Shown here: positions 34,991 to 38,139 of the stretch, one piece after another
Numbering within the stretch: the first letter of the stretch is position 1
Layout of the letters: every line of letters starts with the position of its first letter
Source: Candidatus Nitrosopumilus sp.
GTDB taxonomy: Archaea; Thermoproteota; Nitrososphaeria; Nitrososphaerales; Nitrosopumilaceae
Direction of reading: 5' to 3'
DNA: 64,000 nucleotides
Assembly: GCA_013215285.1 (NCBI GenBank)
Contig: JABSRD010000006.1
Location: 62,001-126,000, forward strand
Translations under genes and position numbers: made by a program
The notes under the pieces: model-generated
What the model was told of the DNA's origin: nothing
The model's database searches: none
The model's input: the letters and a program-made list of their open reading frames with translations, nothing else

Positions 34991-35746
34991 ATGACATGGT
35001 ATTTTGATTCACACATTCATTTGTCTGATTACACATATTCTTCTGATATAAAATTTATTTTAAAGGAGATGGAAATTTTAAAAATAAAAGCTTGTTGTGT
35101 TTCAATGAATTATGAAAATTCTTTAGAAACTTTAAACCTCACAAAAAAAAGTAAACTAGTTTTACCTTTTATTGGAATTCATCCTGAATGTGCAAATGAC
35201 AAACTTGAACCAATTACTGATTTGATAGAAGAAAATAATCAAAGTCTTTCTGGAATAGGGGAAATAGGATTGGATCCTACTTATGTTAAAAATAATGAAG
35301 ATACTAAAAGACAAATCCATGTTTTTGAAACATTGTTATCTCTTGCAGAAAAATTTAACAAACCTGTTTCTATTCATTCAAGAAAAAGCCTTGATAATAT
35401 TCTTCAAATCATGACTTCCTATAATACCAAACATGCGTTACTCCATTGGTTTGATGGTAGTAAAAAACAACTTCAGAAAGCTATGGATATGGACTTTTTT
35501 GTTTCATATGGGCCTGTAATGGTATATGCAAATGATAAACAAACTTTGTTGTCTAAAACTGATGAATCTAAAATCCTTGTTGAAACTGATGGTCCTGTGA
35601 GATTTTCTAGGTGTTTTGAAATGAAATCTGGGCAAATTAGCTTTATCCCTAGTGTGATCTTTTGTGCTTCTAAAATTTTAGGGAAATCCTTTGATGACAT
35701 GACATTATTACTAGAAAAAAACTCAAATTCTTATCTTGGAATATAG
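34991..35746 (+). CDS. TatD-family metal-dependent hydrolase
   Basis: 251 aa. Metal ligands are visible as SHIHLSD (HxH at residues 8 and 10), GEIGLD, PVSIHSRKSL, LLHWFDG and ETDGP. The family includes 3'-5' DNA exonucleases and tRNA/peptide-linked hydrolases. It is followed by rps17e after 31 bases and may be co-transcribed. Confidence 0.9.
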   Translation: MTWYFDSHIHLSDYTYSSDIKFILKEMEILKIKACCVSMNYENSLETLNLTKKSKLVLPFIGIHPECANDKLEPITDLIEENNQSLSGIGEIGLDPTYVKNNEDTKRQIHVFETLLSLAEKFNKPVSIHSRKSLDNILQIMTSYNTKHALLHWFDGSKKQLQKAMDMDFFVSYGPVMVYANDKQTLLSKTDESKILVETDGPVRFSRCFEMKSGQISFIPSVIFCASKILGKSFDDMTLLLEKNSNSYLGI

Positions 35747-35777: not shown

Positions 35778-36185
35778 ATGGATAGAATAAAGCGTATCTC
35801 ATTTGAAGTACTTGATACTCACAAGTCTAAATTCGGAGAAGATTTTGCTGATAATAAACTAGCTTTAAATCAAATTGCTATCATTCGTTCTAAAAGTTTG
35901 AAAAATAAGGTTACTGGCTATATTACTAGATTTATCAAAAAAGAGATTCGTGAAGAAAAAGATAAACAATCACGAATTTCATCCTCACAATTTCAAACAC
36001 AAGAAGAATCTCAAACAGAAACCTCTGAAATCACTACCTCTGAAGAAATTCCATCTGAAACTATTACAGAAACTATTCCTGTAGAAGAGAAAACTGAATC
36101 TGTAGAAGAGAAAACTGAATCTGTAGAAGAGAAAACTGAATCTGTAGAAGAGAAAACTGAATCTGTAGAAGAGAAAACTGAATAA
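35778..36185 (+). CDS. rps17e: 30S ribosomal protein S17e with acidic repeat tail
   Basis: The conserved S17e core (MDRIKRISFEVLDTHKSKFG ... NKVTGYITRFIKKEIREEK) occupies about the first 65 residues, the normal length of archaeal S17e. A 70-residue Ser/Thr/Glu tail follows, ending in five near-identical SVEEKTE heptads. The tail is probably disordered and solvent-exposed. Core assignment is secure; the tail's role is unknown. Confidence 0.9.
   Translation: MDRIKRISFEVLDTHKSKFGEDFADNKLALNQIAIIRSKSLKNKVTGYITRFIKKEIREEKDKQSRISSSQFQTQEESQTETSEITTSEEIPSETITETIPVEEKTESVEEKTESVEEKTESVEEKTESVEEKTE
36081..36182 (+). repeat. 21-bp tandem repeat, five copies, in the S17e tail
   Basis: Unit GTAGAAGAGAAAACTGAATCT encodes VEEKTES. 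Copies start at 36081, 36102, 36123, 36144 and 36165; the last runs directly into the stop. The copies are identical at the DNA level, which implies recent expansion or ongoing homogenisation. Confidence 0.97.
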
Positions 36186-36226: not shown

Positions 36227-37000
36227 ATGATTACCGTAAAATTTGTTGGTGGTGCAAAAAAGTCATTTTTAAGTGAACAATTAATAATTAATGAATCCGA
36301 TATAACTATTCAAAAATTACTTGATTTATTATTAGAACAAAAACCTGATAATACTCCTGATCTAGACACACAGAATATTTTGATTGCGATAAATGGAACT
36401 GATTCATCTGCTATGGATGGTAAATCTACTAAAATTAAAAATAATGATCTTGTTAGTATTATTCCTGTAATTCATGGAGGTTCCTCAAAAAAACTTTCTT
36501 TTGAAATACTGAAAAAACAAATTCAAATAGTTGAAATTAAGGGTGAAAAAACAATTGATGTAAAATTTCTTGATGATTTAAGAGCAAGATATCCAAAAAT
36601 TCACCTTCAAGCTGTATCGAGTAATTTTATTTTAAACAATAATCATTTAAAAAAAATTTTATCTTTATCATTAGAATCTGAAAAAAATGATATTTTACTA
36701 TCAAATAAACTTGAAACTGATATTTTAATACGTTTTGCATTGACTGGACAAATTTCTGATGCAATAATGAATGTTGGAATAAAACCAAAAACCAATTTTA
36801 TTTTAATTATAATTGGAAATAAAAAAACTCTAAATTCAATATATGGTGAATTATTACCATTTTCTGTTAATTTATTTTCAAAAGATAATACTTTATTCCT
36901 AAAAAAATATTTTAAAATAACAAAAAAACAACTTGATTCAGTTTACTCAAAAAATCCTTTAGAGGATATTTTAGTAGAAAAAGCAGCTATTTTATTCTGA
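36227..37000 (+). CDS. Ubiquitin-like sulfur carrier (MoaD/ThiS/Urm1-type) fused to KEOPS Cgi121 domain
   Basis: Residues 1-85 read as a beta-grasp carrier: MITVKFVGGAKKSF, a helix (TIQKLLDLLLEQ), ILIAING, NNDLVSIIPVIHGG, ending in the diagnostic GlyGly at 84-85. After a short linker, residues about 95-257 match Cgi121, with the hallmark SNKLETDILIRFALTGQI, then AIMNVGIKP and FILIIIGNK. Cgi121 is the tRNA-recruiting subunit of KEOPS, which makes t6A37. A Sua5 gene supplying the t6A intermediate lies 0.5 kb away. The reading frame is continuous, so the two domains are translated as one protein, possibly cleaved after GlyGly. Confidence 0.8.
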   Translation: MITVKFVGGAKKSFLSEQLIINESDITIQKLLDLLLEQKPDNTPDLDTQNILIAINGTDSSAMDGKSTKIKNNDLVSIIPVIHGGSSKKLSFEILKKQIQIVEIKGEKTIDVKFLDDLRARYPKIHLQAVSSNFILNNNHLKKILSLSLESEKNDILLSNKLETDILIRFALTGQISDAIMNVGIKPKTNFILIIIGNKKTLNSIYGELLPFSVNLFSKDNTLFLKKYFKITKKQLDSVYSKNPLEDILVEKAAILF

Positions 37001-37513
37001 AATACTTCGTTTAGTTTTTTCGATGCTTAATACATCTGATTTTTTTAATATAGAAACTCCCGTTTTATTACCCAAAATCTCAATTAATACAACTTTATCT
37101 GGAAATTCAAGTGAAACTTTATTTTTTATTTTAGTTGCTATTTTTTTAATTATTTCTTGACTGGATAAATTGGAATTTCTCTTTTCAATTGATATTCTAT
37201 ATGTTTCACCCTCTATGATTTCTTCACTCATTTCTGAAACTGTTTTTTCTATTTGTTCAATCTTTGTTTCAATGACTTTTTGAATTGGTATAATTCTTAA
37301 ACAATATCTCACACTCCAAGGTTCATCAAGAACCATTTCTTTAATTTTTCTTACAACCTCTACTGGATCAAGCTTTGTTTCAGCAGTTAAAATCCCTGAC
37401 ATTTCTGTGATTGTAACTTTAACATCAGAATCTCCAAATTCTTCTAGAATATCACATAATTCCTCTTCTGTCTCAGGTTCTAGATGTCTAGCACAAGTAA
37501 TGATCATATTCAT
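36992..37513 (-). CDS. THUMP-domain protein, Tan1-like
   Basis: 173 aa. MIITCARHLEPETEEELCDIL opens the protein; the start could also be ATG 37507. The C-terminal half has the THUMP pattern (GETYRISIEKRNSNLSSQEII ... FPDKVVLIEILGNKTGVSIL). Tan1-like THUMP proteins bind tRNA and help make N4-acetylcytidine 12; others guide thiolation or methylation. It overlaps the Sua5 gene by 4 bases, so the two are one operon devoted to tRNA modification. Confidence 0.78.
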   Translation of the reverse strand: MNMIITCARHLEPETEEELCDILEEFGDSDVKVTITEMSGILTAETKLDPVEVVRKIKEMVLDEPWSVRYCLRIIPIQKVIETKIEQIEKTVSEMSEEIIEGETYRISIEKRNSNLSSQEIIKKIATKIKNKVSLEFPDKVVLIEILGNKTGVSILKKSDVLSIEKTKRSISE

Positions 37514-38139
37514 AATCCAAAAATCTCCTCTTGACTTATAGAACCTTTTCTAATAATTTTGATCTTTTCATTTTCTATTTCAATAATTGTTGATTCTCCT
37601 TTACTAGTAATCGTTCCTCCATCAACAAAAATATCATAGTTTTGCATATTTTTTAAACATTCATCAGGATTTGTAAATGATGTTTGTCCAGAAATATTTG
37701 CACTAGTTCCTACTAAAAAATTACATTTTTTTAATAGATCTAGTGTACACTTGTGATTTGGAACTCTTATGGCAATTTTATCAACAACATTTAATGATTT
37801 TTTTAGATTTTCATCAGTTAATTTTAAAATTATTGTAAGTGGTCCTGGCCAAAATTTTTCTGCAATTTTTTTAGAAAATTTATCAAAAAAAGCAATTTTT
37901 TCTGCAATTTCTTTTGAATATACTAAAATTGGAAATGGTTTTGAAGTGTTTCTAGATTTAATGTCATAAATTTTCTTAACTGATTCTTTATTGTATGGGT
38001 TACAACCTATTCCATATACTGTATCTGTTGGAAAAATTATCACTCCACCTTGATTAATAATTTCAACAGCTTTTTCAATCCCTTCTTCATTACAATTCAC
38101 TTTCAATATTTTTCTGTATTTTTTTTGTTTAATTATCAT
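37510..38139 (-). CDS. Threonylcarbamoyl-AMP synthase (Sua5/YciO/YrdC family)
   Basis: 209 aa, the YrdC domain only. GGVIIFPTDTVYGIGCNP and KSRNTSKPFPILV are the substrate-binding blocks; the C-terminal SUA5 domain is absent, as in YrdC. It makes threonylcarbamoyl-AMP from threonine, bicarbonate and ATP, the donor that KEOPS transfers to A37 of tRNA. Close to the Cgi121 fusion gene, it completes a t6A neighbourhood. Confidence 0.9.
   Translation of the reverse strand: MIIKQKKYRKILKVNCNEEGIEKAVEIINQGGVIIFPTDTVYGIGCNPYNKESVKKIYDIKSRNTSKPFPILVYSKEIAEKIAFFDKFSKKIAEKFWPGPLTIILKLTDENLKKSLNVVDKIAIRVPNHKCTLDLLKKCNFLVGTSANISGQTSFTNPDECLKNMQNYDIFVDGGTITSKGESTIIEIENEKIKIIRKGSISQEEIFGL

What the first reader, a model, noticed from the sequence alone, without database searches (positions are those of the whole stretch)
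36227..37000. Ubiquitin-like carrier with GlyGly fused in frame to the KEOPS subunit Cgi121
Seen: one open frame in which a beta-grasp domain ends in VIHGG at residues 81-85 and is followed by a full Cgi121-like domain with SNKLETDILIRFALTGQI. Known: MoaD/ThiS/Urm1/SAMP carriers need a free C-terminal GlyGly for adenylation and thiocarboxylation or for conjugation to proteins; Cgi121 recruits tRNA to KEOPS for t6A. Inference: either the polyprotein is cleaved after GlyGly, like ubiquitin-ribosomal protein fusions, releasing carrier and Cgi121 in equal amounts, or the GlyGly is buried and the carrier domain has become a scaffold. Either would link tRNA thiolation or protein conjugation to t6A synthesis. 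I do not recall this fusion being characterised.
Basis: partly seen in the sequence, partly recalled or inferred. Interest (0 to 1): 0.78.

Follow-up and report, generated by a model that had tools for sequence, protein, structure and literature searches.

The report
Urm1-like carrier fused to KEOPS Cgi121
In this ammonia-oxidising archaeon a ubiquitin-like sulfur-carrier protein and a tRNA-modification subunit are made as one chain, a fusion already described from genomes in 2010; comparison across 115 related genomes suggests the chain is cut right after the carrier's Gly-Gly, so it is probably a precursor rather than a permanent two-in-one protein.

Summary
One 257-aa frame (36227-37000, +) holds an Urm1/ThiS-like beta-grasp domain ending VIHGG (residues 81-85), then a complete Cgi121 domain. 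It is not a sequencing artefact: the fusion is near-universal in the family. It is also not new. Makarova & Koonin (2010, PMC2948915) reported it in all thaumarchaea then known, with the S17e neighbour. I found no biochemical study of it.

What this work adds is evidence on the open question, cut or uncut.
- In 113 fused Nitrosopumilaceae sequences HGG is invariant, while the next 15 residues are the least conserved stretch.
- The Gly codons drift freely, so the peptide is conserved, not a DNA signal.
- In 33 unfused relatives the carrier ends at GlyGly or within nine residues after it.
- Some relatives keep carrier and Cgi121 at separate loci.
- The genome has one E1, two JAMM proteases with intact motifs and an NcsA-like tRNA thiolase. 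No free carrier was detected; the only other carrier domain is fused to the E1.

Best reading: a JAMM-processed precursor giving carrier and Cgi121 in equal amounts (about 0.68). An uncut scaffold is the main rival (about 0.2). Cleavage itself was not tested.

The parts
36227..36481 (+). Urm1/ThiS-like beta-grasp (Ubl) domain, residues 1-85
   Evidence: Pfam ThiS and Urm1; AlphaFold2 plus Foldseek to Urm1/SAMP structures
36473..36481 (+). His-Gly-Gly (residues 83-85), invariant; presumed cleavage after Gly85
   Evidence: Entropy 0 in 113 fused sequences; carriers of split relatives end at or within nine residues of this point
36482..36526 (+). Variable linker and first Cgi121 strand (residues 86-100)
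   Evidence: Mean column entropy 2.43 bits against 1.50 (Ubl) and 1.73 (Cgi121); lowest-pLDDT block is 81-90
36515..36997 (+). Cgi121 domain of KEOPS (about residues 97-257); stop codon 36998-37000
   Evidence: NF011465 E 1.1e-47, Pfam CGI-121; Foldseek to Cgi121; Q175, I176, G184 have the spacing of M. jannaschii Cgi121 Gln71, Ile72, Gly80
35778..36185 (+). Ribosomal protein S17e, 41 nt upstream on the same strand, probably cotranscribed
   Evidence: Pfam S17e E 2e-15; S17e directly upstream of the carrier in most loci, fused or split
34991..35746 (+). TatD family protein, conserved upstream neighbour
   Evidence: Pfam; conserved order
36992..37513 (-). THUMP-domain protein, convergent, 9-nt overlap with the fusion gene
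   Evidence: Pfam THUMP E 4.3e-11; conserved order
37510..38139 (-). Sua5/TsaC, which makes the threonylcarbamoyl-AMP used by KEOPS
   Evidence: Pfam Sua5_yciO_yrdC E 8.5e-55; conserved order

Best explanation
The gene encodes a precursor. It is translated as one chain and a JAMM (desampylase-like) metalloprotease cuts it after Gly85. This releases a mature Urm1/SAMP2-type carrier with a free GlyGly and Cgi121 in equal amounts. The carrier is then activated by the genome's single E1 (UbaA/MoeB-like) and serves the NcsA-like thiolase, and possibly protein tagging; Cgi121 joins KEOPS to bring tRNA for t6A37. Shown here: the domains, invariance of HGG, the freely drifting linker, the HGG end of the carrier in unfused relatives, and the presence of E1, JAMM and NcsA-like genes. 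Inferred: the cleavage, that JAMM does it, and the functions of the products.
For: HGG has zero entropy in 113 fused Nitrosopumilaceae sequences (the two re-split genes among the 115 genomes also keep it), although the median Ubl identity between pairs is 55% and residues 86-100 are the most variable stretch. Gly codons at GG match background use, so selection acts on the peptide. In 33 split loci of the class the carrier ends at GlyGly-stop or GlyGly plus one to nine residues, with Cgi121 usually starting within about 45 nt. In one genus-level group the carrier stands alone after S17e, and in G243 Cgi121 lies about 200 kb away. The fused/split state changed at least seven times on a tree, so no fixed geometry is needed. 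The genome has two JAMM genes with HSHP...PSxTD motifs, one aligned to P. furiosus JAMM1 at E 6.7e-16, one E1 and an NcsA/TtuA-like thiolase, but no free ThiS/MoaD-like protein was detected. Precedent: HvJAMM1 cuts a SAMP1-MoaE linear fusion exactly after GlyGly, also in vivo, and deletion of GlyGly abolishes it (PMC4443979); a Caldiarchaeum JAMM cuts SAMP precursors (PMC6043591).
Against: No protein evidence was available. HGG could be kept for another reason, such as a structural or binding role in the uncut chain. The thiolase was not found in one single-contig genome, G046, whose HGG is intact, so thiolation cannot be the only reason everywhere. The linker to the first Cgi121 strand is short (about 7 residues in most), which may limit protease access. 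Small divergent free carriers could have escaped the two profile searches.
Confidence: 0.68

Rival explanations
1. Permanent two-domain protein: the beta-grasp domain stays attached as a scaffold or regulatory arm of KEOPS, and HGG is kept for a structural or binding role.
For: The fusion is near-universal in a whole family and old (family clade support 99); invariant residues exist in both domains.
Against: HGG has the same form in unfused relatives, where it is at or near the real C-terminus; the linker is variable and low in confidence; pTM 0.67 despite pLDDT 91.8 suggests no firm domain-domain packing; the genes are separate in many relatives.
Confidence: 0.2
2. Cgi121 is also made on its own by internal translation initiation, so the fused chain is a minor or secondary product.
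For: Unfused relatives start Cgi121 overlapping or just after the carrier's end; HGG codons can contain a GGAGG-like sequence.
Against: No in-frame ATG/GTG/TTG within 12 codons after GG in the window; only 22 of 78 fused loci have one, at varying places; GG codons are not biased to GGAGG. It would not free the carrier's C-terminus.
Confidence: 0.05
3. Regulated partial cleavage: the uncut fusion is an inactive reserve, and JAMM cutting switches on carrier and KEOPS together, as with SAMP1-MoaE.
For: The SAMP1-MoaE precedent (PMC4443979); a JAMM match in 123 of 124 good genomes of the class.
Against: Nothing here speaks for regulation rather than constitutive processing.
Confidence: 0.06

Closest known systems
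Ubl-Cgi121 fusion of Thaumarchaeota (Makarova & Koonin 2010, PMC2948915)
   Same: Same fusion, same lineage, same S17e neighbour; they also reported Ubl-E1-TBP fusions in Thaumarchaeota.
   Different: They reported it as a genomic observation and proposed SAMPylation control or coordination of KEOPS. In the passages I read they did not test GG conservation, the linker or split junctions.
SAMP1-MoaE / MoaD-MoaE linear fusions cut by JAMM (PMC4443979; D. radiodurans DR0402, cited in PMC11237513)
   Same: Ubl first, GlyGly internal, functional partner second; cleavage shown precisely after GlyGly.
   Different: Partner is molybdopterin synthase, not a tRNA-modification subunit; cleavage is experimental there and inferred here.
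Ubiquitin-ribosomal protein fusions of eukaryotes (own knowledge)
   Same: Ubiquitin-fold domain released from a fusion after GlyGly in equal amount with a translation protein.
   Different: True ubiquitin and eukaryotic deubiquitinases; unrelated partner.
Caldiarchaeum ubiquitin and SAMP precursors (PMC6043591)
   Same: Precursors cut after GlyGly by Rpn11/JAMM proteases.
   Different: CsUb has only a nine-residue tail after GlyGly, not a second functional domain.

Membership tests
Urm1/ThiS/SAMP sulfur carriers and modifiers | Beta-grasp fold and family profile | tested here: met
   ThiS E 1.6e-9, Urm1 1.5e-4; Foldseek to Urm1 and SAMP1
Urm1/ThiS/SAMP sulfur carriers and modifiers | GlyGly at the C-terminus | tested here: inconclusive
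   GlyGly present and invariant but internal as encoded; terminal only if cut
Urm1/ThiS/SAMP sulfur carriers and modifiers | Cognate E1, thiolase and JAMM in the same genome | tested here: met
Urm1/ThiS/SAMP sulfur carriers and modifiers | Adenylation, thiocarboxylation or conjugation | not testable with these tools
   Needs biochemistry
Cgi121 (KEOPS subunit) | Family profile and fold | tested here: met
   NF011465 1.1e-47; Foldseek to Cgi121 of yeast, human, M. jannaschii
Cgi121 (KEOPS subunit) | tRNA CCA-contact residues | tested here: met
   Q175, I176, G184 invariant in 113 sequences, same spacing as MjCgi121 Gln71, Ile72, Gly80; profile alignment to M. jannaschii Cgi121
Cgi121 (KEOPS subunit) | Kae1, Bud32 and Pcc1 in the genome; binding to Bud32 | not tested
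   Not searched; Sua5 lies two genes away
JAMM-processed GlyGly precursor fusions | GlyGly conserved at the junction with a tolerant linker | tested here: met
JAMM-processed GlyGly precursor fusions | Cleavage after GlyGly | not testable with these tools
   Needs protease assay or proteomics

The most novel reading that the evidence does not exclude
In Nitrosopumilaceae both carriers detected are made only as the front halves of larger proteins, a MoaD/SAMP1-type one with its own E1 and an Urm1/SAMP2-type one with Cgi121, each with an internal GlyGly-Ser in this genome. JAMM proteases would then supply the cell's free carriers, and one cut would deliver equal amounts of the carrier for wobble-U34 thiolation and the KEOPS subunit for t6A37, two modifications of the same tRNA anticodon loops.
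Probability: 0.4. Interest if true: 0.6.

Novelty: already known. Interest (0 to 1): 0.42.

Why it matters
The fusion has been known for 16 years without a tested mechanism in the papers searched. Invariant HGG before a freely drifting linker, with matching ends in split relatives, points to one cheap assay: incubate the fusion with the two JAMM proteins. If it is cut, JAMM becomes a supplier of carriers in an abundant group of marine archaea and physically couples two tRNA anticodon-loop modification pathways, an archaeal parallel to ubiquitin-ribosomal protein fusions.

Tried and rejected
1. E1 loss as a natural experiment. The Ubl-E1 was not found in about 23 of 119 good family genomes, and HGG stayed intact in all 52 fused genes taken from genomes without a strong E1 hit, which looked like evidence against E1 use. 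I rejected it: threonine synthase sits directly upstream of E1 in 33 of 33 and 80 of 80 loci, all 24 single-contig family genomes have the E1, and many of these loci lie at contig ends. Assembly gaps and loss of the whole operon cannot be told apart.
2. Internal start or Shine-Dalgarno at HGG: not supported.
3. Phage origin: no match.
4. A 520-aa frame carrying the carrier at its end in L090 appears to be a shadow frame of GC-rich DNA.
5. Sigma-70 and terminator scan: at or below chance level, and not designed for archaea.

Full report
What is there. The 257-aa frame at 36227-37000 (+) is real. Pfam places ThiS at 15-85, Urm1 at 2-85 and CGI-121 at 117-254; NCBIfam calls the second half KEOPS Cgi121 at E 1.1e-47. 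The AlphaFold2 model from 59 homologues has mean pLDDT 91.8, with the weakest block at residues 81-90, and pTM 0.67. Foldseek matches Cgi121 structures from yeast, human and M. jannaschii, and separately Urm1 and SAMP1. The contact residues for the tRNA CCA end in M. jannaschii Cgi121 (Gln71, Ile72, Gly80; PMC7718258) correspond by spacing to Q175, I176 and G184, all invariant in 113 sequences.

Surroundings. The order histone-like gene, TatD, S17e, carrier-Cgi121, then THUMP and Sua5 on the other strand, is complete in 59 of 106 loci scored and partly visible in most others, many of which are short stretches. It holds whether the two halves are fused or split. Sua5 makes the substrate of KEOPS (established knowledge). 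The only E1 found in the genome carries its own N-terminal carrier domain with an internal GlyGly-Ser. Two JAMM proteins and an NcsA/TtuA-like thiolase are present. Searches with ThiS and archaeal MoaD profiles found only the two fused carriers.

Spread. A match to the query was found in 186 of 200 family genomes and 130 of 150 class genomes; in the family most are full-length fusions. I fetched loci and read the junctions. In the first set, spanning several families, 78 loci were fused and 33 split. A second set of 115 genomes, all from the window's family and overlapping the first, has 113 fused and two split. On a tree of 66 carriers joined with their Cgi121, the family forms one clade (support 99) and the fused/split state needs at least seven changes. 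These include two re-splits inside the family (L095, L096), fusions in f3 (L070; L076 and L077) and fusions in f10 and f12. Split and fused forms can differ by a single stop or frameshift next to GG. In L061 and L096 an in-frame stop follows HGG by one codon. In L059, L062, L068 and L095 a possible start codon for Cgi121 lies in another frame inside the His-Gly codons, CATGG.

Is GlyGly used? Three observations say yes. First, H83, G84 and G85 have zero entropy in 113 fused sequences (effective number 69 after down-weighting close relatives), against a mean of 1.50 bits in Ubl 1-80 and 2.43 bits in residues 86-100. Second, the Gly codons there follow background use. Third, the carriers of split relatives end at GlyGly or within nine residues, and those with a few extra residues would themselves need trimming. 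A domain kept only as a scaffold would not be expected to preserve the exact reactive tail while its junction drifts. The residue after GG is S (68 of 113), A (29), T, R, G, N, K or I, never Pro.

Mechanism. HvJAMM1 cuts a SAMP1-MoaE linear fusion exactly after GlyGly in vitro and in vivo, GlyGly is needed, and the uncut fusion is inactive (PMC4443979). A Caldiarchaeum JAMM cuts SAMP precursors (PMC6043591). [quoted passage not shown] By analogy, the fusion most likely yields a SAMP2/Urm1-type carrier for the NcsA-like protein and Cgi121 for KEOPS. Both pathways act on the same anticodon loops (U34 and A37; established knowledge). The cut and its enzyme are inferred, not shown.

What weakens it. 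The thiolase was not found in the single-contig genome G046, so the carrier must have other uses there, or the fusion has. An apparent loss of E1 in draft genomes could not be trusted (see the rejected leads). Other KEOPS subunits were not searched. Other family genomes were not scanned for free carriers. The genomes are related, so 113 is not a count of independent cases.

Literature. Makarova & Koonin 2010 (PMC2948915) described this fusion in all thaumarchaea then available, its S17e neighbour, and Ubl-E1-TBP fusions. Searches for later work combining Cgi121 with Urm1/Ubl found no biochemical study, within a library that lacks most subscription journals.

Verdict. The fusion is real and already published. 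The new contribution is comparative evidence that it is a processed precursor, which turns an old open question into a simple assay.

Noticed in passing
36079-36183: Five perfect copies of a 21-bp unit encode an acidic EEKTESV repeat tail on ribosomal protein S17e; perfect identity suggests recent expansion.
   Followed up: no
L034 439-1776 (-): The only E1 found in the genome is itself fused behind a MoaD/SAMP1-like domain with an internal GlyGly-Ser (known as Ubl-E1-TBP); threonine synthase precedes it in every locus checked.
   Followed up: partly
G000:C12:112228-112509 (L035) and G000:C23:111914-112180 (L036): Two different JAMM proteases with intact HSHP...PSxTD motifs; the second is only distantly desampylase-like and might have another substrate.
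   Followed up: partly
L019 (G046): A single-contig genome in which the NcsA-like thiolase was not found while HGG is intact; the carrier may have a non-thiolation role there.
   Followed up: no
L060, L065, L069, L072, L075: Carrier gene alone after S17e, ending exactly HGG-stop, without Cgi121 next to it.
   Followed up: partly
36992-37513: Stand-alone THUMP-domain protein next to Sua5, conserved position; its tRNA-related role is unassigned here.
   Followed up: no
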